Shown: piece after piece, positions 4,800 to 30,126 of the stretch
How the letters are laid out: each line of letters starts with the position of its first letter
Numbering within the stretch: the first letter of the stretch is position 1
Made by a program: the position numbers and the translations under genes
The notes under the pieces: generated by a model
Databases searched by the model: none
What the model was told of the DNA's origin: nothing
What the model saw: only the letters and a program-made list of their open reading frames with translations
Assembly (NCBI GenBank): GCA_028554795.2
Contig: CM068839.1
Coordinates: 38,159,006-38,223,005, forward strand
Source of the DNA: Sinohyriopsis cumingii
Taxonomy: Eukaryota; Mollusca; Bivalvia; Unionida; Unionidae
Reading direction: 5' to 3'
DNA: 64,000 nucleotides

Positions 4800-5350
4800 A
4801 GCAGCAGGGGGGCGAATCCGACAACTTTTTAGACAAAATTTGATTGAGGTTTTAAAACGACAAATAGAGCCTTCCTTCGAAATCTCACTTTTCAAACAAA
4901 AAAAAAATAAAGTCTCCGTTTGGCAAATGGAGACTTAGCATTTTTTGCTCGAAAACGCTATATTTCGCGACAACATCTCGTTGGTGTTTTCCCGTGGTAA
5001 TCATCGGGCGTCCCGCGTCGATGTCATTTCCCCCCCTGCTGCTAAGGGGTTATTTACAACTAACCGAATATTTGGTCAAGTCCGATACGATATCGTGAGC
5101 AGGGGGGGCGAATCCGACATTTTGTCCAATCGTTATTTTGCTTAATTATTACTTTCTGCATTCAGCGGATCCGGTGTAGTCAGCGCCTGGTAAAAAAAAA
5201 ACGACGACGGTCCATCCTACACGACGGTGACGTCATTTGGTTTAATACATTTTCTGCGAGCCGATCCCAGCGTCGTCAGCGTCCGGTAAACACAGCGACG
5301 ACCGCGTCGATGTCATTGCCCCCCTGCTGCTAAGTGGTTATTTACAATGA
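4800..5350. repeat. Left terminal inverted repeat of element 1 (mosaic)
   Basis: Pairs with the complement of 19625-20193 at near identity; visible differences are mostly homopolymer lengths (G6 against G14 at the tip). Internally it is composite: an outer unit of about 245 bp (4800-5045) begins AGCAGCAGGGGGG and ends CCCCCCTGCTGCT; a 45-bp copy of the 3' end of the ATPase gene follows (5053-5097); a second unit (about 5098-5333) again begins AGCAGGGGGGGCGAATCC and ends CCCCCCTGCTGCT. The small open frame at 4945-5145 lies wholly in this repeat and is not a gene. Confidence 0.93.
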
Positions 5351-5363
5351 AAATGATTTACAA

Positions 5364-6026
5364 CTAACCGAATATTTGGTCAAGTCCGATACGATATCGT
5401 GTCCGAGGATCATGTAAATTTATCGTTACAAATCCATGTGGGGTCGACTGAGCATGACTAAAAAAGTTTCGAAAACCATTAAAGTCCATGTCACCGCCGC
5501 ACCATGTCTGCCAAATATTTCGTAGCGTGTGTGTATCAACGCCGTTGAATACAGCAAGAATATTACAGTTGTCTCTGATTACTTTTGGAATCCGAGTGTA
5601 TCGTTGAGTGACATATATCACGTCGGTGTTTTTATGCCTGCCTCTGGAAAATATCCTAGCTGGGTTTTTTTGATTGGCTAACATAACATCATCGTACACG
5701 ACTAGATTGTTAACGTCGCCATCAATATCATCAATACCTGGTGCATCATTGATATCTGTAATAAACTCAATAACATTTTTTTCAGCGATCGCTGATGCAT
5801 TCTCGTTAAAATCTTTCAACACCTCGTAGCATCGTTGATCATCCACGCTAGGGGCGATTAAATACAACTTATCCCACTTCATCCATCTCATTATTAAATT
5901 GAGTAACAATTGCGTCTTGCCGGATCCAGATGGTCCGATGATAATCATCCGGATCGAGTTTGGTAACGCTGCAACATGCTTAACTGGTTCTCTTGTTTTA
6001 GTCGCCGAAAAATCAATTATATTCAT
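5364..6026 (-). CDS. A32/FtsK-HerA-type genome packaging ATPase
   Basis: Encodes about 220 residues. Walker A is IIIGPSGSGKTQLLLNL near residue 35 and Walker B is NNLVVYDDVML near residue 110, followed by VTQRYTRIPKVIRDN, the sensor-like stretch typical of the A32 family. In Polintons, adintoviruses and nucleocytoplasmic viruses this ATPase pumps the genome into the preformed capsid. ATGs at 6038 and 6026 are both possible; 6026 (MNIIDFS) leaves a more plausible 17-bp gap to the divergent zinc ribbon/PLA2 gene. The stop is only 13 bp from the inner edge of the TIR, and its last codons are repeated within both TIRs. A decayed orthologue lies at 31540-32188. Confidence 0.92.
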   Translation of the reverse strand: MNIIDFSATKTREPVKHVAALPNSIRMIIIGPSGSGKTQLLLNLIMRWMKWDKLYLIAPSVDDQRCYEVLKDFNENASAIAEKNVIEFITDINDAPGIDDIDGDVNNLVVYDDVMLANQKNPARIFSRGRHKNTDVIYVTQRYTRIPKVIRDNCNILAVFNGVDTHTLRNIWQTWCGGDMDFNGFRNFFSHAQSTPHGFVTINLHDPRTRYRIGLDQIFG

Positions 6027-6043
6027 ATCTCTATACATAAATT

Positions 6044-6585
6044 ATGGATTTATATTGTGTGAAGTGTAGAGTGCGTACTGGCACAAATGATATGACAACC
6101 GTTACAACAAGAAATAACAGATCGGCACTTACTGGTAAGTGTGTACAATGCGGTACAAAGAAATTTAGATTTATTTCTATTAGACCCGGGGATGCTTTAA
6201 AAAAAAGCGAGGAGGTGATATTGCAGCCAAGTTATCAAAACTCCCCGGAACACCGTGGGCAAAGTATCCAGGAGAAAAGCACCTCCCAGGATATAGCTAC
6301 TGTGGCCCCGGAACACGATTAGATATCAGACTCGATGATCAAAATCAGCCCAAACCCGGTGAGTATCCAATAAACGCTATCGATAAGGCGTGTCATGCTC
6401 ATGATGTTGCTTACTACAAAAGTAGCGATCTGCAACAGCGTCATATCGCGGATGTAAAATTAATTCACGCGTTAAATGCTATTCCTGATAAATCCCTCAA
6501 AGAAAAGTTGGCTTCATGGTTGGTAAAATCGGCTATGAAAGGTAAATTAATGATTGGAAGCGGAGCTTCTCGCGCTGCTAATTGA
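6044..6585 (+). CDS. Zinc ribbon plus parvovirus-type phospholipase A2, with a -1 frameshift at an A8 run
   Basis: The first frame (6044-6322 if unshifted) encodes a two-CxxC zinc ribbon of DUF5679 type: YCVKCRVRT and GKCVQCGTKKFRF. The phospholipase A2 part lies in the -1 frame from the A-run 6199-6206 to TGA 6583-6585. It shows the Ca-binding loop YCGPGT and the catalytic DKACHAHDVAYY, and ends IGSGASRAAN. Parvoviruses and Polinton relatives use such a domain to breach endosomal membranes during entry. The PLA2 frame has no ATG of its own. The heptamer T TTA AAA at 6196-6202 resembles a -1 slippery site, but in the decayed copy in element 3 ribbon and linker are in one frame, so a simple indel or an assembly error is also likely. 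Confidence 0.85.
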
Positions 6586-6610
6586 AAACGCTAGCGTTTA
6601 TAATAACAAC
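6580..6610 (+). promoter_or_regulatory. Repeated start signal before the integrase
   Basis: AATTGAAAACGCTAG overlaps the PLA2 stop (TGA 6583-6585), then TTTATAATAA, then ATG at 6611. The same layout precedes the virion genes. This fixes the integrase start at 6611 rather than the upstream ATG at 6554. Confidence 0.6.
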
Positions 6611-7555
6611 ATGGAATCCATCTATTATTCTCCGAGAGGATACTGGAAGGGGAAGGCCGCAATTGGTAAACTCGCAAGCGCTGCAAAGGTAACAAAGGCC
6701 ACTGCGGCTAATTGGTTATCCAAACAGGCTATATGGCAAATTTATCTACCACCGCCTAAACAAATCAACTTCTCGCACTTTGATGTCAGCGTACCTAATG
6801 AAGTTCATCAGGCTGATATACTATTTCTGCCGCATGACAACGGTTACAAATACGCGCTAACCGTAGTTGATGTTGCGAGTCGATACAAACAAGCGGAGCC
6901 GTTAAAAACAAAGTCAGCAACTGAAGTAGCCGATGCGTTTGAGCGGATTTACCGAAGGGGTCCTCTGCGCTGGCCAAATCTATTACAAGTTGATCCTGGC
7001 AATGAATTTCGCGGCGCTGTTCTATCAAGGCTGAAACATCATAGCGTCGCGATACGACGAGGTCATACTGCGCTACATCGTGATCAGGCAATTGTTGAAC
7101 GATTCAATCGGACTCTTGCTGAACGGTTATTTGGATATCAATACGCGAAGGAATTCATCCAGGAAAAACGATCTCGTGAATGGGTCAAAAGGTTGCCAGG
7201 CGTAATTGCAGCGTTAAATAACGAGATTACCCGAGCAATCAACATGAAGCCCAGCGACGCGATTAAATACGAGTACATACCCGGAAGATCAAAAATAGAT
7301 AGCGTTTCCAAGCCGATTCTCGGCGATGTCACTGTTAGATATCTGTATGAACCAGGAGAGCTTGAAGGCGGTAAAAAAAGAGCTACTGATCCTATTTGGA
7401 GTGTTACCACGCATAACATATCAACGATAACACGATCAACTGGTAGACCACCGATCTATAGACTGGATTCAACTGCTCCTCAGCGCGGATTTACTCGCGA
7501 GCAACTACAAGTGATACCTGACGATACTCAATTGCCCCCGCGTGGCCTTAACTAG
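6611..7555 (+). CDS. Retrovirus-type DDE integrase (rve fold)
   Basis: 314 residues. The catalytic triad is visible as D69 (VHQADILFL), D128 (LLQVDPGNEF) and E163 (AIVERFNRT), the last two separated by 34 residues. It starts SIYYSPRGYWKG with a helix-turn-helix-like N-terminal region and ends with a small beta-rich domain (VTVRYLYEPGELEG) but no chromodomain. It inserts the linear element into host DNA and is the likely maker of the 5-bp target duplication. The start at 6611 is chosen because the conserved start signal ends there. Its last codons overlap the convergent replicase gene by 8 bp. A decayed relative lies at 30127-31010. Confidence 0.95.
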   Translation: MESIYYSPRGYWKGKAAIGKLASAAKVTKATAANWLSKQAIWQIYLPPPKQINFSHFDVSVPNEVHQADILFLPHDNGYKYALTVVDVASRYKQAEPLKTKSATEVADAFERIYRRGPLRWPNLLQVDPGNEFRGAVLSRLKHHSVAIRRGHTALHRDQAIVERFNRTLAERLFGYQYAKEFIQEKRSREWVKRLPGVIAALNNEITRAINMKPSDAIKYEYIPGRSKIDSVSKPILGDVTVRYLYEPGELEGGKKRATDPIWSVTTHNISTITRSTGRPPIYRLDSTAPQRGFTREQLQVIPDDTQLPPRGLN

Positions 7556-10500
7556 CGCCGTTGCGTCTATTGCACTCAAGACAGGTCAACCTCACATTGT
7601 TTTTGACATGACCGAGACTGTTATCGATCCTGTCCACGGTAAATTGGCGAGCGTCTTTATCCGAATAACGCCAGCGCATTACACAATTGCAACTCGCGCA
7701 GTGATTATTTTGTTGTTGTCGTAACGCAATTATTAATTCGGCATCAATATCAAAACGCCGCTGTTTTTTTTTATCCTGTTGGCGGTAACCCGAGAGTTTT
7801 CTATCAATGACGCTAGCATCAATAATGTCATCGTTGTCGCCGGCTTCGTCGGTGGCTTCGTCAATAACAATTCTTCGAAGCTGATTCATTCTCCGTACTC
7901 TGGACACTGCAAGATAGACTAGATTTGACCATTCGATGCGATTATCAACTATCCAAACAATTGTATCCGTGATAGTCAATCCCTGCGAGGAATGTATTGT
8001 CGTTGCGTATCCTAGCGTCCACGGGGATTTATCAGCACGTAGCGCGTCCTCGACGACGCTGATATCAACGAGCACAATATCATTCAGCACAAGAATTTGT
8101 TTTTTTGTCCCTGACGCTGTCGGGCACGAGATTTCAACTTCAATATTCTGCCGCCGTGTGTCCGCGGGTCTATAACATAACGGCACTGGACGCGTTGGAA
8201 ACTTTTCCTTATGCAACGTAAACAACTTCCGCTGAAGTGTGTCTCTGACTATCTTTCTACTCGCTACAATCAAATCGTTTGGTCTCCATGTTTCCCAGAA
8301 TTCATTTAACGGCGTTTCCGGAATCACCTCGCGGATTATTTCACATTGAACTCTATCCGGCTGTAATCTGATTAATTTTTTAACCTCGCGCAGTTGTTCA
8401 TCAAGTGCTCGGTAATCAGTATCGGTTTCTTCATAATAGTCCACAAAACCCTTTAACCAATCATGTGGACCCTCGCCGACAAATGGTGGTGGTTGGCCAT
8501 GGTCGCCACACATGATTACCGCTGTATTCGCGTGCAGCAACCACTCAAGAAACATTTGTAAAGTATCTAACGAAACAGTACATATCTCATCCCAGATGAT
8601 AACCTCAGGAATAAATTTTTCACCCATTCGATCAGGAGTCCACTCACCGCCGCTGTATCGAAAAAAGCTGTGATAAGTAACGGCGTCAACATTTCGTTGT
8701 TTTATCTCTCGCGCTAGTCTATGGGTAGGTGTAAGCACGATTATACTTGCCCGCGTTCGAAATAATTCAATTGCCCGAGTCGTCTTTCCTGACCCGCCAC
8801 AGCCGCTTAAATAAACTGTTTTATATCTACAAATTGGATCAGAACACGGTGGTGCATTAGACCATTCTGATAATTTATCACCGCGTAAGTAATTATTTTC
8901 AACGGTGACATTTGCTGACGGGGAATAATCGCGTCGTATTTCATTTTTAATTCTCCATATACCCCAACTCTCGTCCGGACTAGTAAACTCGGTTATGTTT
9001 CCCTTGTACTTTACGTCTATATAAAATGAATCAATCGCAACTCTAACCGCGGTGTCGGGAAATCTATTTATCATCGAGAATAAATTGATAGCGGCGTAAC
9101 CCAGCATAGACGCCCTCAAATGCGGATACGCGGGGCTGTCTCCATCGGCGTAAGTAACAACTGTACCCAACTTTGTTCCATTGGACAAGAAAGCTGTTTT
9201 GCAGTTCACGTATCTATTTTTTGCCACTGCGTCCTTGATTACGAAATCATATTCTGCGTCATCTATAATCAGCCGTGAGCAATATCGTTTGTAGTCGCAG
9301 TTTTTTCCACCTTGTGTGAACTTACCAATTATTCTTCTACCGAGATCTTTTGCCTTGCGGTTTCGTTGGTTGAATATCTTTTTGGACCATTCGATGATAT
9401 ATTCCTCGTCGGCATCAATGTGTTTTCTGGACTCGTCAATTATGCTATCTAGACGCTCTGGTTCTGGTAACCAGACTTCAGTCTGCGCCCGGTATGATAT
9501 AATCGCGTCACTGACAATCAACGATACAAGCATGCTACAATCAATCATATACCGTAGCAGCGCTATTGGCAGCCACTTCTTTTCAGCCATGTGTCTACCG
9601 ATCCAAATATAACAACAGCGATGAAGTCCTGCCGCGAATTCAAATGATACTATGCGAGCGAATCCGGTTAAATCAAAATCAGGCAGTGGTCCATTAATAG
9701 CAACACGAGTCATTTCATGTCTGGGGTGTCCAAATCGTTTGAAATACTCAGCGGCGGATCCATACCCGAGAAAACTCGCTGGATAACAGGCAACCATATC
9801 AACGGAAATCATAGCGTCGCGGTTGTATTCAGTGTTCCATAGTCCACCGTGATAATATTCCAAACAACTGGATTGTACATCCGGTAGAAATTCCTTGCGC
9901 GTTGGTCTCCACGCATTTTTCCTTGCTGCAACATGAGCCGCAACCGATGGAATCGTAAAACAATTTGTTAGCAGTTGTTCATCATGCTCTTCAAATTCCA
10001 TTGCGGTTTTTTTCATCTTGTTGTGAAACGCTTCAGTGCGATATAATTCACCGTTTGGTCTTACAAACTGATCAAAGGTATCCACATCGTTTTCAGCGCT
10101 GCGAAGTAACCACACTGACACAGGGTCGTTTTTACACAAGCAGGCAATAGCATCAAATAGTTTCCTCTCCGCGAGAAAACCATCCTCTCCCAGGAATTCC
10201 CCCGGGATATACTTTACTGTTCTATCCCGTGGAAATATTGTGACCGCGGACGTCCACGCGTGTTCGTTATGATCAATAATTTTGATTGGGGCTCCATTTG
10301 ATTTATACTTTGATTCATATAATACTTCACCGGTTATTGTTGTAACGGTTATTGGAAATCTCAGCGACGTTTCTAATCTCGCTATGTCGCTGATGGTTGC
10401 TCCTCGCTCGCGCACTGTCTCCTCCCATTGGTTTATTTTACTACGTCGTAAATCAGTCAGTTTATTTCCTCGACACGCATTTGTAAAATGCCCTATTACT

Positions 10501-11030
10501 CGTTCTGCTACACAATTTATCCCCGTTGACTGTTTCATCGGCGCTAGTTTTCCGATATCAGGTTTCTTATTTAACGGGTATATTCCATAGACAACTGCTG
10601 TTTCAGGATACGCTCGTTCATAGTATGGTCTGTCAACTCCGGTTAACAGCCCCGGCTTGGAGTCGCGGCTAACAATGACTGTTTTCTTGTCGCTGAGAAC
10701 CGGTTCAAATTTATCACGTATGATCCAATTACCTGATTCCACCCGGACAATGAATTTTACTCTGAAGAAATACTTGCTGGAGCCAAGTTGTGATATTATC
10801 GTTGCTGCGCGGTTGTCGTTCATGGTAGCATCAACAACACCATCAATTCGAAATGTTGACCAACTATGAGATGCACCATCACGCTTGAATTCATTGATAC
10901 AGTCGCGTATTTTATTCAACAGGGTTCTATCGTTTATTAACGCTTTTGGTGCGTCCTTGAGGACTCTATCGAGATTGAACTTAATATTTTTCCAGGGCTT
11001 AATTGCTGCTAATCTCTCGAACTCATCCAT
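7548..11030 (-). CDS. Replicase: PolB-like palm, SF1 helicase and HNH nuclease in one protein
   Basis: 1160 residues from ATG 11030 (MDEFERLAAIKPW). Residues 1-400 have no recognised fold. Residues about 400-675 carry divergent B-family polymerase-like motifs: SVDMVACYPAS (409-419, motif A-like), IGKFTQGG (568-575, motif B-like) and AIDSFYID (665-672, motif C-like). Residues 740-1050 are an SF1 (Pif1/RecD-like) helicase: Walker A GCGGSGKTT, VIIWDE, CGDHGQPPP, IHSSQG and LAVSRVRR. The C-terminus is an HNH domain with paired CxxC (CASC 1111-1114, CLEC 1150-1153) and VDRID. It presumably replicates the viral genome; the polymerase assignment is by motif resemblance. I have seen similar proteins in other invertebrate genomes. 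It is read opposite to the virion genes and convergent with the integrase. Element 3 holds a decayed copy. Confidence 0.88.
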   Translation of the reverse strand: MDEFERLAAIKPWKNIKFNLDRVLKDAPKALINDRTLLNKIRDCINEFKRDGASHSWSTFRIDGVVDATMNDNRAATIISQLGSSKYFFRVKFIVRVESGNWIIRDKFEPVLSDKKTVIVSRDSKPGLLTGVDRPYYERAYPETAVVYGIYPLNKKPDIGKLAPMKQSTGINCVAERVIGHFTNACRGNKLTDLRRSKINQWEETVRERGATISDIARLETSLRFPITVTTITGEVLYESKYKSNGAPIKIIDHNEHAWTSAVTIFPRDRTVKYIPGEFLGEDGFLAERKLFDAIACLCKNDPVSVWLLRSAENDVDTFDQFVRPNGELYRTEAFHNKMKKTAMEFEEHDEQLLTNCFTIPSVAAHVAARKNAWRPTRKEFLPDVQSSCLEYYHGGLWNTEYNRDAMISVDMVACYPASFLGYGSAAEYFKRFGHPRHEMTRVAINGPLPDFDLTGFARIVSFEFAAGLHRCCYIWIGRHMAEKKWLPIALLRYMIDCSMLVSLIVSDAIISYRAQTEVWLPEPERLDSIIDESRKHIDADEEYIIEWSKKIFNQRNRKAKDLGRRIIGKFTQGGKNCDYKRYCSRLIIDDAEYDFVIKDAVAKNRYVNCKTAFLSNGTKLGTVVTYADGDSPAYPHLRASMLGYAAINLFSMINRFPDTAVRVAIDSFYIDVKYKGNITEFTSPDESWGIWRIKNEIRRDYSPSANVTVENNYLRGDKLSEWSNAPPCSDPICRYKTVYLSGCGGSGKTTRAIELFRTRASIIVLTPTHRLAREIKQRNVDAVTYHSFFRYSGGEWTPDRMGEKFIPEVIIWDEICTVSLDTLQMFLEWLLHANTAVIMCGDHGQPPPFVGEGPHDWLKGFVDYYEETDTDYRALDEQLREVKKLIRLQPDRVQCEIIREVIPETPLNEFWETWRPNDLIVASRKIVRDTLQRKLFTLHKEKFPTRPVPLCYRPADTRRQNIEVEISCPTASGTKKQILVLNDIVLVDISVVEDALRADKSPWTLGYATTIHSSQGLTITDTIVWIVDNRIEWSNLVYLAVSRVRRMNQLRRIVIDEATDEAGDNDDIIDASVIDRKLSGYRQQDKKKQRRFDIDAELIIALRQQQNNHCASCNCVMRWRYSDKDARQFTVDRIDNSLGHVKNNVRLTCLECNRRNGAS

Positions 11031-11069
11031 ATAATTAAAACAAGTATTTAAATGAAAGAATATAGTATA
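11031..11069. promoter_or_regulatory. Bidirectional start region between replicase and zinc protein
   Basis: The 39-bp gap between divergent ATGs contains TAATTAAAACAAG and a TATAGTATA box just before ATG 11070. Element 3 keeps the same GTTTTAATTATA core and ATTTAAATG at 26872-26901, so the core has outlived surrounding coding decay. Confidence 0.5.
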
Positions 11070-11393
11070 ATGAATCACTGCAAATGGTTGATGATTGGGT
11101 CGATAACCCCGTGCAATAAATCATGTAGAGGTGAATTCTGCGGGTATCATTTACAAAGCGTTCGTAATGGTTCTCTTGGCCCCCTACCGTGCTTGGTTTG
11201 CCACGTTGGTGTAAGAAGAAAATCACAGTTGTGTATCAATTGTGGCGGAAAGCGATACAGAGAGTTAAAACGTTATTACGACAAGCGAATAAAAAACGCC
11301 GTCATTGACCCCACCGCTGACTCAGTCATCAAAACTCCTCAGGACTACATTGCAAGGTTTATAATTAAACCAAATAATGAATTAGACAAGTAG
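11070..11393 (+). CDS. Small conserved cysteine-rich (zinc) protein
   Basis: 107 residues from ATG 11070; an ATG at 11052 would add six residues, but 11070 sits at the end of the start signal. The N-terminus reads CKWLMIGSITPCNKSC then FCGYHL, followed by PCLVC and LCINCGGKRYRELKRYY, giving at least two probable zinc sites and a basic helix. No enzyme motif. It is divergent from the replicase with a shared intergenic region, and the same pair is kept in element 3, so a role in replication or early expression is a reasonable inference only. Confidence 0.75.
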   Translation: MNHCKWLMIGSITPCNKSCRGEFCGYHLQSVRNGSLGPLPCLVCHVGVRRKSQLCINCGGKRYRELKRYYDKRIKNAVIDPTADSVIKTPQDYIARFIIKPNNELDK

Positions 11394-11406: not shown

Positions 11407-11940
11407 ATGAACCAAGAATTTCAGCCGCATCCTGTGCTCGTTAATTACGAGGCATCTCGCGACGGCGTTGTTAGAAACCGCAGACTGAAGAAGCCGGTTG
11501 GTACCGTAAATAATCACGGGTATTTGGTATTTGGTGCCGGGGGGAAAATTTATCTTGTTCACAGGGTTGTATATGAAGCGTTTAACGGATTGATCAACGA
11601 CGGTCTTGTTATTGATCACATTGATGGATGTCCTCAAAATAACAGACTGTGTAATCTGCAAGCCATCTCTCAGAGTCAAAATAATAAAAAAGGCCAAACT
11701 GGTAAGTTTTCAAAGCAAGCAAGGGGGGTCAAATCGTTTGATACATCAACGCACGAGGAAAAAATATTTCAGTCGATGAATGAGGCAGGAAAATATTTCG
11801 ACATTTGTAGGGCCTCAGTACGATTTGTTGCAGAACGAGTATATCAAACAGCGATCTCAAAAAAGACGGGTCACAGAATTCGATTTTCGTATATAAATAA
11901 ATCCTCCGATTATAAGGTCACCGTGACAAGGTCACCATGA
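11407..11940 (+). CDS. Free-standing HNH endonuclease (NUMOD4/HNH/NUMOD1-like)
   Basis: 177 residues. The N-terminal NUMOD4-like part contains NYEASRDGVVRNR. The HNH core reads VHRVVYEAF, then VIDHIDGCPQNNRLCNLQAIS, with the histidines and asparagines expected for catalysis. The tail has a NUMOD1-like helix-turn-helix (NEAGKYFDICRASVRFVAERVY). Such enzymes are homing endonucleases in phages and large viruses. Here it stands between the replication and virion modules. AATTAGACAAGTAG and a TATTATTATA box precede its ATG, a degenerate version of the common start signal. It is distinct from the HNH tail of the replicase. Confidence 0.88.
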   Translation: MNQEFQPHPVLVNYEASRDGVVRNRRLKKPVGTVNNHGYLVFGAGGKIYLVHRVVYEAFNGLINDGLVIDHIDGCPQNNRLCNLQAISQSQNNKKGQTGKFSKQARGVKSFDTSTHEEKIFQSMNEAGKYFDICRASVRFVAERVYQTAISKKTGHRIRFSYINKSSDYKVTVTRSP

Positions 11941-12038: not shown

Positions 12039-12474
12039 ATGTTTTATAAGAATATGAATATCGAAGACATCAGTAATATATTAACCGAGATTTTAAAATT
12101 AAAAAATCAAGGAATTGAATTATCTGATAAGCTTGATAACCAAAAAATATTGTCCGATTATGAAATTATTAACGAGCAATCAAAGAAAGGTCGATATACC
12201 TTGCCACGCGAGTATTCTTTTATAAAGCGATTACAATATACGATCAATGAAAACTTGTATGGCAATGACGTAAATGCATTTATTGGACTATTTACTGCCG
12301 TTGAGACAGTACGAAAAAAAACTCGGACAGGCTTTTGAACGACGTCGAGAAATCTCTAATAAAATTAAAAACATTAGAAGGATTATAGACGAAAACTCCC
12401 TGGAGCCCCTGGGATATATCCCCCCCCCCGCCACACTCGGCGGGAAATTAGAAATTACGGAGCAATTGCAATAA
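12039..12474 (+). CDS. Coiled-coil protein, frameshifted at an A8 run
   Basis: Two overlapping frames (12039-12338 and 12274-12474) look like halves of one gene of about 145 residues. The first half is helical and charged (LTEILKLKNQGIELSDKL, PREYSFIKRLQYTI). The second begins with KKLGQAFERRREISNKIKNI and ends in a proline-rich tail. The change of frame coincides with the A8 run at 12314-12321, where the run appears one base too long for a continuous frame. The next gene starts in an ATG overlapping the stop (TAATG at 12472-12476), as expected for coupled genes. Function unknown; Polinton relatives often have a helical minor virion protein here. It could instead be two small genes. Confidence 0.55.
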
Positions 12475-13388
12475 TGGTAGGCGAATCACTTACTACTCGG
12501 CTAGCCAGAGAGCGGCTGGTAGCGCTTAAAAAGTTCATACCGTTACGAGACAGGGTCCGAAAACAACTTCAAACGCGGCAACAACTACAAACTGATTTTG
12601 CTGTTGGAAGCGAACAGCTCTTTGCTCCGGTAACTAAAGCGACCAAAGATGTTAGGGCGGCAACTGTGCCCGTCCTCGGTGCGCTTGAAAAGATAGCGGC
12701 TCAGACCGAGCAAACAAAAAAGTCTCTGGAAACACTCCCTGCGAAAATAGCGGTTGCTACAACACGGAGGCCGCCACAACTCGCTATAACGGACCCACAA
12801 GAACCTTATGTTACAATGGCCGACGAGGAAGAACTAGGCGCCACCGCAAGAGAACCAGAAGAAGAAATACCGGAAGAAATACCGGAAGAAATACGGAAAG
12901 AGGGGAATATACCCCGTAATGTTCTTAAAAAGGACACAATAGATAAAATTAGAAATCTCGGCTACGAAGAATTAGTTAATTTTACTGTTACAAATTTTGA
13001 TAAGGACACACGAGATGAGCATATCAATAGCGGCTACGAGAAAAATATAAGGTCGTTAAAGGATTGGACAAGAATAGTGTATTTGGCAAATAAACATAAA
13101 AATGAATTACCACCGCGTGATAATAATTATATAATATTCCACAATAAAGTAAAAAGTGAAAGACCAAAACACGGAAAAGGATACTCTGTTGGTAAAGACG
13201 TTACTTGTCCTGGTAGTGTTCTCAGTGATATATCACGGCTAGAAATACTAATCGGAGGAAAACGAGCCGGAAATAACTCTCCGGAAATAATCAATGAGGC
13301 CGCTGATATTTGCAGGCGGTTATTTGCCGGTGGTATCATGGACATTAATGCATATCGAACGCTCATTGACGAGTTAGTGGATGATTAA
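12474..13388 (+). CDS. Coiled-coil, acidic-linker minor virion protein (hypothetical)
   Basis: 304 residues. Residues 1-100 are helical and heptad-like (ARERLVALKKFIPLRDRVRK, LEKIAAQTEQTKKSLETL). Around residues 120-145 is an acidic repeat (EEIPEEIPEEIRKE). The C-terminal half has LKDWTRIVYLANKH and ends with SRLEILIGGKRAGNNSPEI and ICRRLFAGGIMDINAYRTLI, a tail I recognise from proteins at this position in other invertebrate Polinton-like elements. No enzymatic motif. Its place at the head of the virion module suggests a structural or scaffolding part. Confidence 0.7.
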   Translation: MVGESLTTRLARERLVALKKFIPLRDRVRKQLQTRQQLQTDFAVGSEQLFAPVTKATKDVRAATVPVLGALEKIAAQTEQTKKSLETLPAKIAVATTRRPPQLAITDPQEPYVTMADEEELGATAREPEEEIPEEIPEEIRKEGNIPRNVLKKDTIDKIRNLGYEELVNFTVTNFDKDTRDEHINSGYEKNIRSLKDWTRIVYLANKHKNELPPRDNNYIIFHNKVKSERPKHGKGYSVGKDVTCPGSVLSDISRLEILIGGKRAGNNSPEIINEAADICRRLFAGGIMDINAYRTLIDELVDD

Positions 13389-13635
13389 AATTGTCGTTTT
13401 TTGTCGGTTTTTGGTCGTTTTTTACGGGTGAAAACCCCAGGAAATCATTTAGAGAAAATCGATGTTTTTTACCAAAAACCGGCAAAAACCGACCAAAATC
13501 GACAAAAATTGACAAAAATTGACAAAAAACGCGGATTTTTACCGCCGATGAAAACCCCAGGAAATCATTTAGAGAAAATCGATGTTTTTGACAAAATTTA
13601 TAATTCAGTGGTGGGAAGGGGGGTGATCAACCACT
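13389..13635. repeat. Repeat- and hairpin-rich spacer between replication and virion modules
   Basis: A 40-bp direct repeat starting GAAAACCCCAGGAAATC occurs at 13430-13469 and again at 13550-13589. Between and before them are short tandem GACAAAAATT units (13501-13525) and T-rich GTCGGTTTTTGGTCG on the left facing CCGGCAAAAACCGACC in the middle, which can pair. An open frame across this stretch (13401-13637) merely translates the repeats. Candidates are a replication origin or enhancer-like element, or a transcription boundary. Confidence 0.7.
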
Positions 13636-13668: not shown

Positions 13669-14121
13669 ATGATTATACACTACAACCATGATAAACCAGT
13701 CAGCGTCTACGTGGTAAACTCACGATTGCCCGTATACCGCGCGTGGTACGGAGACGGTCTCGGTAGCACCATTGCGGGGTTATTTACAAGAATGGCTCCA
13801 AAAGTGGCGCCATTAGCCAAACAATTAGGAATGAAGGCTATTGATGTTATTCGTGATAAGGGAATCAGCGCTATTGGAGATGTCACCGGAAGGGCGTTTT
13901 CTGCAGCAAAGGACAAACTAATGTCGTTGGTGAGAAAAAGAAAACAGAAACCACCGGTGATGCCATCAACGACAGTGATGCCTGCAAATGTCAGTAAAGT
14001 AATAAATAACGCCGTGGAAGAAAAACTAGAGTCATTGGCGGCTCAGTCATCCACCGATGCAACAACCAACGCGCTCATGAACGCGATAGCGGGAAGTGGC
14101 CTACGACGAAAACGACGTTGA
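13669..14121 (+). CDS. pX/pVI-like virion protein (glycine-rich hydrophobic plus basic tail)
   Basis: 150 residues from ATG 13669 (MIIHYNHDKPV), set by the start signal. A short leader is followed by YGDGLGSTIAGLF and a hydrophobic, basic amphipathic region (residues about 45-90), then VRKRKQKPP and a C-terminus ending SGLRRKRR. Small proteins of this kind next to the capsid gene resemble adenovirus core or membrane-lytic proteins pX and pVI in composition. The similarity is compositional and positional, not a firm homology. It is followed within 25 bp by the next start signal. Confidence 0.65.
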   Translation: MIIHYNHDKPVSVYVVNSRLPVYRAWYGDGLGSTIAGLFTRMAPKVAPLAKQLGMKAIDVIRDKGISAIGDVTGRAFSAAKDKLMSLVRKRKQKPPVMPSTTVMPANVSKVINNAVEEKLESLAAQSSTDATTNALMNAIAGSGLRRKRR

Positions 14122-14129
14122 TGAATTGC

Positions 14130-14160
14130 AATTGAAAACATCAACATGATAAATAATAAA
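14130..14160 (+). promoter_or_regulatory. Repeated start signal before the major capsid gene
   Basis: AATTGAAAACATC, then ATAAATAATAAA, then ATG at 14161. An ATG at 14146 lies inside the signal; the spacing seen at other genes favours 14161. Confidence 0.55.
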
Positions 14161-15588
14161 ATGTTTGCGCGAACCGCTGATCCCGAGTTTGATATGGATG
14201 CCCCAGTGCGCAGGGATGACTCTGTCCGTGATTATCAATTTTATTCCTATCAACCACCACAAGCCGACCTACGATCGCGAATTGAACTTCAAGTCCAAGA
14301 TACCAGTAGATACTTTTTACCGTGTGAAGCGTTTATCGAAATCGAGGGAGAACTCGTGACAAATGTCGCCGCTAATACACCATACGCAGATGACCCTCGT
14401 GTTCGAGTTGGCTTCGTCAACAACGGTATCATGGCGTTATTTGAGAGTGCCAGATATCTTATTGACGGGCGAGAAATTGAATCAATAGAACGCGAGGTTG
14501 ATGTTGCAACAACGATAATTGGGTTAGCGAGATACTCGGATGATTATACAAGATCGGCGGGTCCATCTATGATGTTCGCAAAGGACATCTCTAATAGCGC
14601 TGACCACCTTCAGTACATTAACGTGCTGACACCACAAGATACTTCAGTTGCTAATCAAGCTGAAGCAGCTAACCCAGACCGCAGGGCAAGACCAGGCGCT
14701 GATTTCAATATTATAAAAAGTATTAACGGTAATTACAATCTAGGATTCGCAACACGAGTAGGGATGTTGCAAGGACCACGCCGACAGTTTTCATGCGCGA
14801 TTCCACTCCATCACATATTCGGATTTTGCAGAAATGTCAGAAAAGTTATCTATGGGGCTAAGCATACAATCGCGCTAACGCGAAGGGGTGATGATAACAA
14901 TGCAATATGGCATGCTGCTGGCGTCGATAACGGTAAAGTCGTTTTAACTAAAATAGCATTGTGGATGCCGGTGTTGACTCCATCAGTTACCACGGAAGCA
15001 CGATTGTTGTCATTTATGGAACAGGGGGGGAAATCGTTGTTGAGTTGGCTAGCGGTAACAACTGATGCTAAAGAGGATAATGTCGCTGATACATTTACAT
15101 GGCACTTGACATCAAAGCAAGGCGTTTCGTCCCCACGTCATATATTTATAGCGCTACAGAATAGGGAACGATTGGGTAATCAAGAACGCAGCCATATGAT
15201 ATTTGATCAATTAGGAGTCAGGGATGTTTCGCTGAGAATAAACGGACAACAGGAACCATCCGAGGATATACAGCTTAATTACGACAACAACCATATCGCA
15301 CGTGTGTACCATCGATTGCTGTCATACATGGGTCGTGATCAAAACGTCGACACCGGGTTGCAAATATCACAACTTGATTTTAAAAACATGTATCCGATTT
15401 ATTATTTTTCGTTGGAACATCTTGATTTAACGAGACAATCCGTCGTTGATATACACTTCAGAGCTCGTATAGCCCCGGGTGGTGTCGATTATAGAGCGGT
15501 TGCTGTCATTCTCAGCGATAAATCAATGCTATTGGAAGGTGTTGGTGGACGAATGAGAATCGTTGATGCACCAGTGGAAAACATGTAA
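14161..15588 (+). CDS. Major capsid protein, double jelly-roll type
   Basis: 475 residues from ATG 14161 (480 if 14146 is used). The sequence is beta-rich without enzymatic motifs. It contains LFESARYLIDGREIE early and, in the middle, FSCAIPLHHIFGFCRNVRKV and IYGAKHTIALTR, a signature of double-jelly-roll capsid proteins in invertebrate Polinton-like elements. The end has DFKNMYPIYYFSLEHLD and VVDIHFRARIAPG. Length fits this family. Trimers would form the hexavalent capsomers of an icosahedral particle. The frame is intact. Its stop TAA (15586-15588) overlaps the next start signal. Confidence 0.9.
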   Translation: MFARTADPEFDMDAPVRRDDSVRDYQFYSYQPPQADLRSRIELQVQDTSRYFLPCEAFIEIEGELVTNVAANTPYADDPRVRVGFVNNGIMALFESARYLIDGREIESIEREVDVATTIIGLARYSDDYTRSAGPSMMFAKDISNSADHLQYINVLTPQDTSVANQAEAANPDRRARPGADFNIIKSINGNYNLGFATRVGMLQGPRRQFSCAIPLHHIFGFCRNVRKVIYGAKHTIALTRRGDDNNAIWHAAGVDNGKVVLTKIALWMPVLTPSVTTEARLLSFMEQGGKSLLSWLAVTTDAKEDNVADTFTWHLTSKQGVSSPRHIFIALQNRERLGNQERSHMIFDQLGVRDVSLRINGQQEPSEDIQLNYDNNHIARVYHRLLSYMGRDQNVDTGLQISQLDFKNMYPIYYFSLEHLDLTRQSVVDIHFRARIAPGGVDYRAVAVILSDKSMLLEGVGGRMRIVDAPVENM

Positions 15589-15617: not shown

Positions 15618-16094
15618 ATGTCGTATAATGTTGTCGGTGTAGAGTTGACCGATGGTCAAGTCAAGAAATTACGATCAAAGTCGGCTAAACAATGTGGAAC
15701 CACAATAACGTTAAAGCCGTCACAGATGGCAGGTGATAATCATAAGATATCGTTGACGGCGCGTCAAATAAAACATTTCAATGATGCGATGAAGAATAAA
15801 AAGGGTGTTCAAATAGATTTTTCAGCCGCAGCGATTAAAAACATGGAAAAGACCGGTGGGATATTTCCGCTGTTAGCTGCGATTCCAGCGTTGATTGCCG
15901 CGGCGGCCCCAGCAGTGGCGAAGGCGGCGGCGTTAGGAGCCGTTGGTACCGCGGCGGGAATGGCATTGAAGAAGGCAACCGGGAAAGGCTATAAAAAAAA
16001 ACGACCCGTAGCCGGAAAGGGTCTAAGACTACCGGGAACCCCGTATTCATGGTACTCGGGGAAGGGTCTAAGACTACCGGGAACCGTTTATTAA
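15618..16094 (+). CDS. Membrane-active pVI/pX-like virion protein
   Basis: 158 residues. The N-terminal half has paired VELTDGQVKKL and SLTARQIKHF motifs. It is followed by KTGGIFPLLAAIPALI, an alanine-rich hydrophobic stretch (residues about 80-120), and a basic KKATGKGYKKKRP. The C-terminus repeats GKGLRLPGT twice (16013-16087), matching a DNA repeat. This layout, ending the first half with GG-I/F-PLL, is common for small virion proteins in Polinton relatives and resembles adenovirus pVI/pX in composition. Glycine-rich junctions could be sites for the neighbouring protease. The protease gene starts 12 bp after its stop. Confidence 0.72.
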   Translation: MSYNVVGVELTDGQVKKLRSKSAKQCGTTITLKPSQMAGDNHKISLTARQIKHFNDAMKNKKGVQIDFSAAAIKNMEKTGGIFPLLAAIPALIAAAAPAVAKAAALGAVGTAAGMALKKATGKGYKKKRPVAGKGLRLPGTPYSWYSGKGLRLPGTVY

Positions 16095-16105
16095 CGCAAG
16101 AGTCA

Positions 16106-16531
16106 ATGACTCCAATGTCTAATTTTGATTTAATAGATGCCGCAAACGCGTTAGCGATAAAAAACTTCAGAAGTGTTTTTATGAGGGATCAATTGCCGAC
16201 AAAACCAAGGAATATTGAAACCGGTATAATTAACCTCGATAAATCCTCCGGAGCGGGAACTCATTGGGTTGCATACGCAATTGATCCGCGTGCGATCGTC
16301 TATTTTGATTCATACGGGTTAGCCCCGCCAAACGAGTTCATGCGGTATATCCGGGCGTGTTCAGCCCCGGTTTTTTATTCCACGCTGCCAACACAACAAT
16401 TAAGTGACCCACCGATATGCGGCCGTGAGGTATTGAACGTACTCGCGGCGATTTCATCATCGCGGAAACCACCTCATGTGGTTGTAAACGAATACACTAG
16501 TGGGGTCGTAGAGGCCCGGCGGGTTAATTAA
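16106..16531 (+). CDS. Adenain-type cysteine protease (virion maturation)
   Basis: 141 residues from ATG 16106; 16115 is a second choice. It shows the expected order His53 (GTHWVAYA), Asp68 (YFDSYG), Gln97/98 (TQQL) and Cys105 (PPICGREVL), which matches the ULP1/adenovirus protease fold. It would cleave capsid and core precursors inside the particle. The open frame extends upstream to 16049 inside the previous gene. The common start signal is not visible upstream of this gene, so it may be expressed from the preceding transcript. The stop at 16529-16531 overlaps the next start signal. Confidence 0.9.
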   Translation: MTPMSNFDLIDAANALAIKNFRSVFMRDQLPTKPRNIETGIINLDKSSGAGTHWVAYAIDPRAIVYFDSYGLAPPNEFMRYIRACSAPVFYSTLPTQQLSDPPICGREVLNVLAAISSSRKPPHVVVNEYTSGVVEARRVN

Positions 16532-16558: not shown

Positions 16559-17629
16559 ATGATTGATATTTGGGGACGACCGGTTTCGGCGCTGAAAAAA
16601 CCCACGGAAACGCTAGCCACCGATGACATAAAAAAACTAATCGAGGATGAAATCGCTGATACGTTAAATTTAACCAGTGTTGACCCGGGCGAAATAGTTG
16701 TATTTCAAGACCGCCAGGGTAAACTGAAATCCAGTAATGTGTCGCTGAATGACGTTTTAACACGAAATAATGATGCCGCCGAGAACAATATCGTGTTGTA
16801 TACCGATGACGGACGACTTAAGTCAGGTGAATCCATCTTGACGATAAATGGAAAAATAAGTACACTTGGCAACAATTATATATCCATGTCGGATTCGTTA
16901 AAAAATTTGTATGATAAATTTAACGCGCAAGCAAATCAGTTCGAGGGGATACAAAAGTCTGTCACCGGTATACAACTCACTACTGCTAGTTTTTTTGGAA
17001 CCCCGACGGTAACCGAACCGTATCTTGTAGGGATAAAAAATACTATTTCGGAGTTTACAACGCTGTCGGGCCAATTTTACACGTTACGAAAAAATTTTAA
17101 CAGGGCTGATAACACCATTGATAAATTCTTTGGTAAAAAAAATACCAGACCGGAAGAAATTACAATAACTATAAATGATATCACTGCATATGGACAGGAA
17201 ATAGAAACAATCAAAAATTATGTTGAAATATTCAAAGAGGGTATAGAAACGCATACACAGGAAATAGGAACAATCAAATTTGATGTTGAAATGATTAAAG
17301 ACAGACTACCGGAAATGACAAAAATAAAAATCCCTCATGAAAACACCATCAACTCGGTATACACAATTCGGCATGGACAATTAACTTGGACTCCTACACA
17401 GAATATAATAAATATCACCGCAACTGTTAAGGGTATTTACCGATTGACACTGGTTTCAATGATGCAGTTTAATATATCATCGTCAAGTTCATCCGGGTTT
17501 AACAATACAATATCAACAATTATAGACAAGGGCACAATTGAACCGTTTACAATTGAAGCCGTTAATAAAAATTTAATCAGGACAAACATTACATGGTATG
17601 CGGAATTTGTAGCGAATCTAAGTAATTAA
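16559..17629 (+). CDS. Fibre-like structural protein (hypothetical)
   Basis: 356 residues with no enzymatic motif. The N-terminus reads MIDIWGRPVSALKKP and could be a capsid-anchoring peptide. It is followed by short beta-repeat-like segments (VVFQDRQGKLKSSN, VLYTDDGRLKSGESIL) and a long helical region with two related stretches, EIETIKNYVEIFKEGIE and EIGTIKFDVEMIKDRL (around 17196-17310). The C-terminus is beta-rich and Ser/Thr-rich (FNISSSSSSGFNNTIST), as in a knob. A trimeric fibre or spike is the best guess from layout and position; I do not recognise a specific family. Confidence 0.6.
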   Translation: MIDIWGRPVSALKKPTETLATDDIKKLIEDEIADTLNLTSVDPGEIVVFQDRQGKLKSSNVSLNDVLTRNNDAAENNIVLYTDDGRLKSGESILTINGKISTLGNNYISMSDSLKNLYDKFNAQANQFEGIQKSVTGIQLTTASFFGTPTVTEPYLVGIKNTISEFTTLSGQFYTLRKNFNRADNTIDKFFGKKNTRPEEITITINDITAYGQEIETIKNYVEIFKEGIETHTQEIGTIKFDVEMIKDRLPEMTKIKIPHENTINSVYTIRHGQLTWTPTQNIINITATVKGIYRLTLVSMMQFNISSSSSSGFNNTISTIIDKGTIEPFTIEAVNKNLIRTNITWYAEFVANLSN

Positions 17630-17654
17630 AAACACTAGCTCTTTTAAAATAAAA
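17624..17654 (+). promoter_or_regulatory. Repeated start signal before the membrane protein gene
   Basis: AATTAAAAACACTAG overlapping the previous stop (17627-17629), then CTTTTAAAATAA, then ATG at 17655. Confidence 0.6.
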
Positions 17655-18266
17655 ATGACCACCAAGGTAATTGAATCAGAGGTATCACCGACGTCACATC
17701 AATATCGATTCAATACCGTAAAAGAATTCTCCGCGAATTTGAAAACGCTTTCCGAACAATACCGTGTAAAAATAAAAAAATACCGCCGAAAAATAACCAC
17801 CATCGACGCGGTCGTGTACTCGGTGTCGGGTATAGTAGCCGGTACCGGTGTTATTTTATCCACGGTGACCATGATGGCCCCGATCGCTGTTCCAATCGCT
17901 ATCTCCGCGGCGACAACAATTGCTGGAGTCGCCAACGCAATCACTAGAAAGATATCATCGTGTTCTCAGAAAAAACTCAACGAGTATACAGTAAAACATC
18001 AAATAGTATCCGACGCGTACTCGAAATTATCCGGGTTTATCTCGTTGGCGATAGATAATTCGTTTATATCCGATGTTGAATTCTCCACGATGGTCCAGTT
18101 GTATGACTCCGCGATGTCAAAAATCGAGGATTTTCAACTGGAAGATGGAAACCACGTGGCTGAAACCACTTCAATGGGCTTAAAACATTCTCCTGAAACC
18201 ACTTCAATGGGCTTAAAACATTCTCCTGAAACCACTTCAATGGGCTTAAAACAAGCAGGTTGTTAA
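17655..18266 (+). CDS. Membrane protein with central hydrophobic segment and C-terminal repeats
   Basis: 203 residues. A helical, basic N-terminal half (SEQYRVKIKKYRRKIT) leads into a long hydrophobic stretch at residues about 55-100 (VVYSVSGIVAGTGVILSTV, then PIAVPIAISAATTIAGVANA), enough for two membrane passes, then KISSCSQKKLNEY and a helical tail. This layout is widespread at the same place in invertebrate Polinton-like elements. The C-terminus carries three copies of an 11-residue unit ETTSMGLKHSP, encoded by near-perfect 33-bp DNA repeats starting at 18162, 18195 and 18228. The repeats look like a recent expansion. A role in virion membrane interaction is inferred only. Confidence 0.65.
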   Translation: MTTKVIESEVSPTSHQYRFNTVKEFSANLKTLSEQYRVKIKKYRRKITTIDAVVYSVSGIVAGTGVILSTVTMMAPIAVPIAISAATTIAGVANAITRKISSCSQKKLNEYTVKHQIVSDAYSKLSGFISLAIDNSFISDVEFSTMVQLYDSAMSKIEDFQLEDGNHVAETTSMGLKHSPETTSMGLKHSPETTSMGLKQAGC

Positions 18267-18279
18267 TATTCGGTGTTGA

Positions 18280-18310
18280 AATTAAACACTAGAAACAGCG
18301 AATAATAATA
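18280..18310 (+). promoter_or_regulatory. Repeated start signal before the penton-like gene
   Basis: AATTAAACACTAG, then AATAATAATA, then ATG at 18311; the first box lacks two of the usual As. Confidence 0.5.
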
Positions 18311-19633
18311 ATGTCGCTGAACCCCGAAGGGTTGCAATTACTTCAACGGATCGCGGAGAACACCACTCCGGTGCAAACAAATATGATATCGATAACATCA
18401 ACGATGCCAGAATTCAGTGTAAACTTCCCTTCTCCGATTCCAATGAAGGAAATAGCGCTGGCAAAATTGCGAGTATATCACAGTTGGCCTAATATCCGAG
18501 CGGAAGCATTTAACGGACAACAACCTAATAACTCGCTGGTTTTTGCATGGACAAATAAACCCGATGGGACCCCAGACTGGAATGAGATTACAATACCAAC
18601 TGGGTCATACCAAGTAGAACAAATCAATAAAGAATTTCAACGCAGGATAAAATCGATCACAGGAAAAGAATCAAAAATCGCTATTACGGTTCATGAACCG
18701 ACGTTATCGTCGACGATTGAAATAAGCACACCGAGGTATATGGTTGATATTTATAACAGTTCAATAAGAACCATACTAGGTTGGCCCGAGAATCCACCTA
18801 ATGAAATCCCCGCGTATTTGCACACAAATGTGCAATCGTATCATGAGATTAATCCCAGTTATCAAGATGAATTGTCTATTATAAGAAACACGTTATTACC
18901 CAGCGGGTTTATATTTCAAGACAGGAATACCATGCAATGGTATTTTCCGTATAAGCAAACTCCTGAATCGTCCGCCACGGTCACAGTTGGTTTAAATGAT
19001 ATCACTGGTGCGTTTGCCGAGATTAATCGTAATTACCAATTACAACTAGAACAGCTACGGAAAACAAAAGCACGAAAACACGTTGAGGTGTTAAATCAAC
19101 TTATATCAGACATGGAATATATTAATGAGTGAATCGTTAAAACAATATCCGCTAACAGCGATGATAATAAACAAAAATTCCTAACCGAGTATAATATCAC
19201 AGAAGCCGATTTACCCGATTTCAAGTTTCCAGGATACAACGCGCCAGAACTAAGAAAGTCTCTTAATGATTTTTTCGGTCCATCAACTATCCTCAGACAC
19301 GATAACGGAGATGGTGGTAGGCATATTGCTCCATACAACGTAAATATCGCATCGGTGATAGCAATCAATCTAGTGTGTGATGTTATCGAAGGGAGTTACC
19401 AGGTAGATACCAAGCAATCAAATCAAGCTCAACAGGGGTATATCCTTTATTCATTTTCACCAACAGCCCCTCCCGGATTCTTAATCGTTGAGAGCCCGAT
19501 TAATCCGGTCTATATGCGATGCCATAATCGGTTTTTAACGAGAATTAATTTTAGACTTACCGATCAGTCAAATAACCTAATTGATCTACAAGAGGAGGAG
19601 TTAGTGATCACTCTGTTTGTAAGATCATTGTAA
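18311..19633 (+). CDS. Penton-like minor capsid protein, interrupted by one in-frame TGA
   Basis: One frame of 440 codons broken only by TGA at 19130-19132 (codon 274). The N-terminal part has KEIALAKLRVYHSWPNI and ITIPTGSYQVEQINKEF, matching the penton-like minor capsid proteins of invertebrate Polinton relatives. The part after the stop carries their C-terminal features (APYNVNIASVIAINLVCDV, INFRLTDQSNNLIDLQEEEL). The protein would close the fivefold vertices. As read, translation stops after 273 residues and the last 166 are lost. A nonsense mutation, readthrough or a sequencing error cannot be told apart here. The final codons and the stop at 19631-19633 lie inside the right TIR. Confidence 0.82.
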
Positions 19634-20193
19634 ATAGCCCCTTAGTAGCGGGGGGGGGGGGCAATGACATCGACGCGGTCGTCGCTGTGTTTACCGGACG
19701 CTGACGACGCTGGGATCGGCTCGCAGAAAATGTATTAAACCAAATGACGTCACCGTCGTGTAGGATGGACCGTCGTCGTTTTTTTTCTACCAGGCGCTGA
19801 CTACACCGGATCCGCTGAGTGCAGAAAGTAATAATTAAGCAAAATAACGATTGGACAAAATGTCGGATTCGCCCCCCCTGCTCACGATATCGTATCGGAC
19901 TTGACCAAATATTCGGTTAGTTGTAAATAACCCCTTAGCAGCGGGGGGGGGGGGAAATGACATCGACGCGGGACGCCCGATGATTACCACGGGAAAACAC
20001 CAACGAGATGTTGTCGCGAAATATAGCGTTTTCGAGCAAAAAATGCTAAGTCTCCATTTGCCAAACGGAGACTTTATTTTTTTTTTTGTTTGAAAAGTGA
20101 GATTTCGAAGGAAGGCTCTATTTGTCGTTTTAAAACCTCAATCAAATTTTGTCTAAAAAGTTGTCGGATTCGCCCCCCCCCCCCCCCGCTGCT
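19625..20193. repeat. Right terminal inverted repeat of element 1
   Basis: Inverse complement of the left TIR. It begins at the last codons of the penton-like gene, includes a copy of the ATPase 3' end (19884-19928) and ends in GCTGCT. It is about 18 bp longer than the left arm because G/C runs are longer (up to 14-16). Apart from those runs, only scattered substitutions are seen. Confidence 0.93.
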
Positions 20194-30125: not shown

Positions 30126-30126
30126 T

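What the first reader, a model, noticed from the sequence alone, without database searches (positions are those of the whole stretch)
4800..20193. Near-complete integrated Polinton-like virus with full morphogenesis set
TIRs, target duplication, integrase, packaging ATPase, adenain-type protease, major capsid, penton-like and two pX/pVI-like proteins all sit in one 15.4-kb unit with mostly intact frames. Most genomic Polintons are far more degraded, and this replicase type is outside the classic protein-primed lineage. The gene set suggests an element able to make particles or one that was so recently.
Basis: partly seen in the sequence, partly recalled or inferred. Interest (0 to 1): 0.9.

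Follow-up and report, generated by a model that had tools for sequence, protein, structure and literature searches.

The report
Integrated animal virus family swapping capsids
This animal chromosome carries one of roughly 2,700 copies of an integrated virus-like element, and comparing copies suggests that its particle genes stayed under selection and that capsid genes are exchanged between copies like cassettes.

Summary
The unit is real and exactly bounded (4800-20193): ~525-bp TIRs, a 5-bp target duplication, and empty sites in relatives of the target, itself an older PolB gene. Profiles support a packaging ATPase, rve/IS481-like integrase, SF1 helicase-HNH replicase and DJR capsid protein; the protease is weak. 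Two reader claims weaken: the penton-like frame has an in-frame stop here, and penton, pX and pVI identities are unproven. The 1,160-aa replicase has the layout published for Tlr1-type pPolB-S1H fusions, but its polymerase part rests on motifs seen by eye. Replicase and capsid words occur 2,706 and 2,768 times genome-wide (controls 0). Nine of 12 sampled copies keep a full capsid frame. Structural genes show pN/pS 0.13-0.48. Three copies with near-identical replicase (dS ~0.05) have very different capsid genes (dS ~0.8), the switch lying near the capsid gene's edges. Fibre-like shafts vary in repeat number. I read this as a Tlr1-type polinton-like virus family in an animal, spread through particles until recently and exchanging capsids. 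There is no transcript or particle evidence, and both AlphaFold models failed.

The parts
4795..4799 (.). target site duplication ACTTG, left
   Evidence: empty sites
4800..5330 (+). left TIR, composite of an outer and an inner TIR type
5364..6038 (-). packaging ATPase, 224 aa (Walker A GPSGSGKT at 35)
   Evidence: Pox_A32 2.6e-12; motif
6611..7555 (+). rve/IS481-like integrase, 314 aa, candidate D69 D128 E163
7548..11030 (-). replicase, 1160 aa: palm-like motifs (409, 558, 664), SF1 helicase (~735-1050), C-terminal EndoVII/HNH (1083-1159)
   Evidence: palm not confirmed by profile or model
11052..11393 (+). small Cys-rich protein, 113 aa, function unknown, also present in the degraded relative of the window
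11407..11940 (+). HNH (HNH_3) endonuclease, 177 aa, homing-type
   Evidence: PF13392 2.1e-14
12474..13388 (+). 304-aa protein, unknown
   Evidence: open frame, no family above cut-off
13669..14121 (+). 150-aa protein with basic C-terminus; pX/pVI-like only by size, place and composition
   Evidence: pN/pS 0.29
14146..15588 (+). [quoted passage not shown] exchanged cassette, variable block 149-195
   Evidence: PF21738 1.3e-18
15618..16094 (+). 158-aa protein with hydrophobic stretch and GKGLRLPG motifs; pVI/pX-like not proven
   Evidence: pN/pS 0.13
16049..16531 (+). adenain-like cysteine protease, 160 aa
   Evidence: Peptidase_C5 0.0057, below gathering; residues kept
16559..17629 (+). fibre-like protein, 356 aa here (no 21-aa shaft repeats), 503-714 aa in five other copies open from end to end
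17655..18266 (+). 203-aa protein with hydrophobic stretch; weak RTX-domain match below cut-off
   Evidence: pN/pS 0.36
18311..19633 (+). penton-like gene with an in-frame stop after codon 273
   Evidence: no profile match
19656..20193 (-). right TIR
20194..20198 (.). target site duplication ACTTG, right
4113..4799 (+). target: left part of an older, decaying PF03175-type PolB gene
   Evidence: 74-76% aa to five genomic PolB frames
20199..21126 (+). target: continuation of the same PolB gene

Best explanation
A member of a Tlr1-type polinton-like virus family (rve integrase, polymerase/SF1-helicase/HNH replicase, DJR capsid module) in an animal genome. Shown: an integrase-type insertion mark (5-bp target duplication in 3 of 3 copies whose two ends were read), insertion into an older PolB gene, about 2,700 copies, constraint on structural and replication genes, and exchange of the capsid gene between copies. 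Inferred: the replicase copies the linear genome from its TIRs, probably protein-primed; the protease matures and the ATPase fills particles; fibre-like and penton-like proteins serve entry; new insertions came largely through particles and (re)infection until recently; lineages that met in one cell recombined near the capsid gene's edges, so that capsid types changed while the replicase stayed the same. The window copy itself is probably defective.
For: Boundaries and empty sites. Gene set by profile. Copy number: 1,333+1,373 replicase words and 1,373+1,395 capsid words, controls 0; 29 of 34 listed replicase places on C1 have a capsid word 2.5-6.5 kb away in the same orientation, chance 0.035. 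Full capsid frame in 9 of 12 sampled copies, 1 more open to the edge of its piece. pN/pS 0.13-0.48 in seven gene pieces, replicase dN/dS 0.16-0.25 in 9 copies; shared changes more constrained (0.24) than single-copy ones (0.46). Replicase dS 0.043-0.054 against capsid dS 0.75-0.83 in 3 copies; replicase 0.11-0.15 against capsid 0.10-0.14 in 6 others.
Against: No transcripts, particles or virome relatives: five viral-contig scans found none. Every copy read in several places has lesions somewhere: in 6 of 6 copies chosen for close capsids the replicase frame is broken; by nucleotide alignment 11 of 20 high-scoring copies have neither a stop nor a frame-shifting gap in the capsid gene; fibre frames are interrupted in most of the 20 pieces. 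The palm domain is not confirmed: no PF03175 match, no similarity to PolBs of the same genome (a weak test), useless model. Constraint could in part be inherited from before integration.
Confidence: 0.7

Rival explanations
1. A capsid-independent, self-synthesising transposon: replicase and integrase amplify it inside germ-line nuclei, and the structural genes are passengers or serve only occasionally.
For: Thousands of copies in one genome, target duplications and TIRs suffice for transposition; no virome relative found.
Against: Capsid, protease and neighbouring genes are about as constrained (pN/pS 0.13-0.29) as the replicase (dN/dS 0.16-0.25); most sampled capsid frames are open; a variable capsid block and variable fibre shaft point to outward-facing proteins.
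Confidence: 0.2
2. The capsid mosaic arises by gene conversion or unequal recombination among integrated copies in the host germ line, not by recombination between replicating virus genomes.
For: About 2,700 similar templates in one nucleus; the switch points lie in conserved flanks.
Against: The exchanged stretch matches one gene closely in several copies (best inner segments 14029-15488 and 14032-15495 in L049 and L036), while most frames stay open. Not excluded; the two routes can coexist with the best explanation.
Confidence: 0.25
3. A host-domesticated element family, for example an antiviral or gene-delivery system like integrated virophages.
For: Constraint on structural genes and high copy number.
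Against: Copies keep full mobile-element anatomy (TIRs, integrase, 5-bp duplications) and decay one by one, which fits a mobile population better than a host gene set.
Confidence: 0.05
4. Chimeric assembly or contamination.
For: Higher G+C (37-45%) than the sequence left of 4 kb (28-35%).
Against: Exact target duplication and empty sites, target gene continuous across the insertion, copies across many large contigs.
Confidence: 0.01

Closest known systems
Tlr1 element of Tetrahymena and polinton-like viruses with a 'Tlr1-like helicase' (pPolB-S1H)
   Same: rve integrase, packaging ATPase, DJR capsid gene, TIRs, and a large replicase with palm-like motifs, first Asp of motif C replaced, SF1 helicase and a C-terminal endonuclease (PMC11071308 section 10 and passages; PMC4642659 and PMC12721341 passages).
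   Different: Host is an animal; tail is HNH/EndoVII-like where Tlr1 has GIY-YIG; adenain-like protease and a fibre with variable shaft. Palm, vOTU and terminal-protein domains not demonstrated here.
Classic Polintons/Mavericks (Eupolintoviridae)
   Same: rve integrase, ATPase, DJR capsid, protease, TIRs of a few hundred bp, size near 15 kb; purifying selection on core genes is reported for cyprinid Mavericks (PMC8097293, abstract and passages).
   Different: No PF03175 pPolB in the element; 5-bp instead of the 6-bp target duplications given for intact vertebrate Mavericks in PMC8097293; at most 38 intact copies per genome reported there against thousands of copies here (number fully intact here unknown).
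Adenoviruses
   Same: A fibre-like gene of conserved start, repeat shaft and conserved end; an adenain-like protease; a capsid protein with a hypervariable block (comparison recalled).
   Different: Shaft repeats are 21-residue heptad repeats; no significant fibre or penton homology was found.
Mass-expanded polinton-like elements of protists (Polarella, cryptophytes)
   Same: Hundreds to thousands of integrated copies (about 2,500 in Polarella according to a passage of PMC12721341; PMC12220804 seen as abstract start only).
   Different: Protist hosts; capsid-cassette exchange is not mentioned in the passages that I saw.

Membership tests
Tlr1-type polinton-like virus (pPolB-S1H) | SF1 helicase in the large replicase | tested here: met
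   AAA_19 5.3e-11, Dda-like 1.3e-17, RecD2 model 6e-9
Tlr1-type polinton-like virus (pPolB-S1H) | protein-primed PolB palm upstream of the helicase | tested here: inconclusive
   motifs in order at 409, 558, 664 judged by eye; no PF03175 match, model useless, no similarity to genomic PolBs
Tlr1-type polinton-like virus (pPolB-S1H) | C-terminal GIY-YIG or HNH endonuclease | tested here: met
   EndoVII/HNH models 2.5e-10 and 5e-7 over residues 1079-1159
Tlr1-type polinton-like virus (pPolB-S1H) | vOTU and terminal-protein domains before the palm | not tested
   no family match for residues 1-700; the model is too poor to look for them
Tlr1-type polinton-like virus (pPolB-S1H) | rve integrase (as in Tlr1) | tested here: met
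   rve 3.8e-8, above gathering
Classic Polinton/Maverick | pPolB with exonuclease (PF03175) | tested here: not met
   no match in the element's replicase at E <= 1, while 75 of 75 scored places elsewhere in the genome match
Classic Polinton/Maverick | 6-bp target duplication | tested here: not met
   5 bp in 3 of 3 copies
[quoted passage not shown]
   PF21738 1.3e-18 above gathering, residues 209-398 of 480; no PDB match by sequence
DJR-capsid viruses (Preplasmiviricota) | packaging ATPase | tested here: met
   Pox_A32 2.6e-12 above gathering
DJR-capsid viruses (Preplasmiviricota) | single-jelly-roll penton/minor capsid protein | tested here: inconclusive
   no profile match, model of the first 273 aa useless
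DJR-capsid viruses (Preplasmiviricota) | particles | not testable with these tools
   no reads, transcripts or virion data

The most novel reading that the evidence does not exclude
A circulating, integrating DNA virus of an animal that keeps a genome-wide library of about 2,700 proviruses, reuses one replicase backbone, and changes its outer identity by swapping capsid-gene cassettes, varying one capsid block and lengthening or shortening its fibre: serotype switching in a polinton-like virus.
Probability: 0.4. Interest if true: 0.88.

Novelty: new variant of a known kind. Interest (0 to 1): 0.72.

Why it matters
Particles of Mavericks had not been observed according to the abstract of PMC8097293 (2021). 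A family with thousands of copies, mostly open capsid frames in a small sample and exchanged capsid types makes 'do animal polinton-like elements still make particles?' directly testable in a living host. It would also place a Tlr1-type replicase in an animal; in the papers that I could see it is described from protists, algal viruses and transpovirons. I could not see Krupovic et al. 2016 (PMC5499653) or the 2024 review PMC11426020 (neither held), and the listings showed me no such animal report, which is no proof of absence. High Maverick load in bivalves as such is known: 7,091 annotated copies, 1.69% of the Mercenaria genome (PMC8905726, passage).

Tried and rejected
AlphaFold2 of the replicase (10-row alignment, pLDDT 39.9) and of the first 273 aa of the penton-like gene (36.4) were too poor to use, so no fold search was made; the capsid protein was not modelled. 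Replicase residues 1-735 against six PolB pieces of the same genome gave nothing, but the profile was effectively one sequence deep and two pieces were short, so this is a weak negative. Five viral-contig scans (capsid twice, replicase, ATPase, integrase) found no relative; phages none. IS481EU transposons were considered because of the IS481 match and rejected: abstract and introduction of PMC10045372 (first of five parts) describe parabasalid elements with TG..CA ends and duplications of about 4, 15 or 25 bp. The penton tail was first searched in a wrong frame, corrected. The first dN/dS run failed on three minus-strand loci and is superseded. The fibre N-part ratio (0.50) was dropped because 19 of 20 rows carried frame-shifting gaps in that nucleotide alignment. 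Family PF21738 in the own genome did not complete.
Full report
WHAT IS THERE. The unit is 4800-20193, flanked by ACTTG (4795-4799 and 20194-20198). The TIRs align over 526 nt with 4 mismatches, two of them at the edges of G/C runs, so the insertion is young if TIRs are equalised at each replication (inference). The two flanks joined with one ACTTG match 40 of 40 scored places at 83-87%; 30 cover 1-300 of 300, all cover at least 8-296 (3,473 first-look candidates). Two further copies read at both ends have CATTA and CCATG, also 5 bp. The window's TIR is composite: its inner part resembles the terminal TIR of four other copies (L021, L024, L028 and the copy ending in L033), its outer part that of L023.

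TARGET. The flanks belong to a PolB gene. Of six PolB pieces from the same genome (L063-L068), all match window 4132-4791 and the stretch from 20199 on as DNA. The five whose long frame covers the place resume at 20199 with the next residue (L064: 650-878, then 879-898). L064 and L066 are PF03175 at 3.3e-44 and 1.3e-44. The element thus sits about 40 codons after motif A of an older, decaying PolB gene. In the genome 75 of 75 scored candidates match PF03175, many with open frames near 1,360 aa (first look 21,499). Whether those genes belong to classic Polintons was not tested.

GENES. Packaging ATPase, rve/IS481-like integrase, helicase and HNH domains of the replicase, a separate HNH endonuclease and the DJR capsid protein are supported by profiles. 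The protease is weak (0.0057) but keeps four expected residues in nearly all of 20 copies (roles recalled). The product of 16559-17629 is fibre-like: five of 20 other copies have a frame open from a conserved start (MIDIWGRP.SALK) to the conserved end, 503-714 aa, with 4-17 'ANK' units of a 21-residue, three-heptad repeat. A sixth (L013, 763 aa, 16 units) ends in a shifted frame, the others are interrupted, and the window has no unit (356 aa). The penton-like frame has a stop after codon 273 in the window. Of 20 right-hand pieces, 3 show the whole frame open (L021, L023, L028), 5 show a lesion, 9 are open as far as the piece goes (one of them over 19 codons only), and 3 show no match. Its identity as a penton is not established.

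REPLICASE. Residues ~735-1050 are a Pif1/RecD2/Dda-like SF1 helicase and 1083-1159 an EndoVII/HNH domain. Upstream, SVDMVACYPASF (409), RKAKDLGRRIIGKF (558) and VAIDSFY (664) resemble PolB motifs A, B and C in order (positions; resemblance judged by eye). This is the layout of Tlr1-like helicases, now called pPolB-S1H, including the lost first Asp of motif C and an HNH or GIY-YIG tail (PMC11071308, section 10 read). No profile or model confirmed the palm. Membership in the Tlr1 type is probable by architecture and unproven for the palm.

COPY NUMBER. A 32-base replicase word with up to 2 mismatches occurs 1,333 + 1,373 times, a 24-base capsid word with up to 1 mismatch 1,373 + 1,395 times, the reversed patterns 0 times. 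On C1 up to 157.3 Mb, 29 of 34 listed exact replicase places have an exact capsid word 2.5-6.5 kb away in the same orientation (chance mean 0.035). At 15 kb each this would be near 1.4% of 2.9 Gb (estimate; copies need not be full length). Of the 89 scored capsid copies 77 have no stop, but those were ranked by score. Of the 40 scored replicase copies 30 have none. A less biased draw, 12 places chosen along the listed exact replicase words on C1-C3, has capsid sequence in 12 of 12, a full open capsid frame in 9 and one more open to the edge of its piece; 2 are broken. Against this, nucleotide alignment of the 20 high-scoring pieces finds neither stop nor frame-shifting gap in the capsid gene in 11 of 20, and in 17/19, 14/20, 18/20, 11/17, 12/16 and 7/7 for 13669, 15618, protease, 17655 and the two penton-like parts (some gaps lie at the first codons of the capsid gene). 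The replicase is broken in 6 of 6 copies chosen for close capsids. Integrated copies therefore decay.

SELECTION. Among the window and 7-20 right-hand pieces (20 of the 89 scored copies, plus-strand ones), pN/pS is 0.29 (13669), 0.27 (capsid), 0.13 (15618), 0.24 (protease), 0.36 (17655), 0.48 and 0.29 (two penton-like parts). Changes seen in one copy only have an N/S rate ratio of 0.46 with 10 stop changes, shared changes 0.24 with 1. The replicase has dN/dS 0.16-0.25 against the window in 9 copies. The family has thus been filtered for working structural genes, with weaker filtering on copy-specific changes. The same argument is made for cyprinid Mavericks in PMC8097293 (abstract and passages).

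CAPSID EXCHANGE. Of the 40 best replicase copies (97-98% aa) I fetched the capsid region of 8: capsid identity to the window is 72-73% in 5, 80% in 1 and 90-91% in 2. For three of the five, replicase dS is 0.043-0.054 and capsid dS 0.75-0.83; six copies chosen for close capsids have replicase dS 0.11-0.15 and capsid dS 0.10-0.14, so the capsid gene is not simply faster. In L049 identity is 98-99% up to about 14.03 kb, 70-89% over the end of the preceding gene and the capsid gene, and 98-100% after the capsid stop; L034, L035, L036, L038, L039 and L041 also return to 97-100% there. The best inner segment runs 14029-15488 (L049) and 14032-15495 (L036), less exactly in the other four, and in 6 of 6 its log-likelihood gain (42-121) exceeds the best of 20 shuffles (7-12; the shuffles were scanned at a coarser step and do not model rate differences between genes). 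Of 57 strongly variable or gapped columns among 10 capsid sequences, 30 fall in residues 149-195. Exchanged capsid gene, variable block and variable shaft are what surfaces under host pressure would show (inference).

HOST. 2.9 Gb in 1,138 contigs, no name available. A phosphagen-kinase exon matches taurocyamine and arginine kinases best: an animal, perhaps a lophotrochozoan.

VERDICT. The element is genuine and more interesting as a family than as one copy. It works like an integrating polinton-like virus with the Tlr1-type layout; it is not a classic Polinton by two tested features. This copy is probably defective in its penton-like gene.

Noticed in passing
window 26607-32181: A second, inverted and degraded relative with only the Cys-rich gene, replicase, integrase and ATPase recognisable (37-69% aa to the first); no capsid-module match. 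An older, diverged lineage of the same kind.
   Followed up: partly
window 4113-4799 and 20199-21126; L063-L068: PF03175-type PolB genes form a large family in this genome (75 of 75 scored candidates match, many open frames near 1,360 aa); the element landed in a decayed one.
   Followed up: partly
window 4800-5330 and 19656-20193: Composite TIR: two TIR types in tandem at both ends, each found alone as the terminal TIR of other copies.
   Followed up: partly
window 13429-13596: Two 48-bp direct repeats (96%) and short T-rich inverted motifs between the 304-aa gene and the 150-aa gene, a possible control region.
   Followed up: no
window 11407-11940: Stand-alone homing-type HNH endonuclease between the replicase and the structural genes.
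   Followed up: no
window 37836-39248, 40932-42629, 60105-60989: Long open frames of probable other transposable elements; one has a sub-threshold DUF4371 match, the other two no Pfam match.
   Followed up: no
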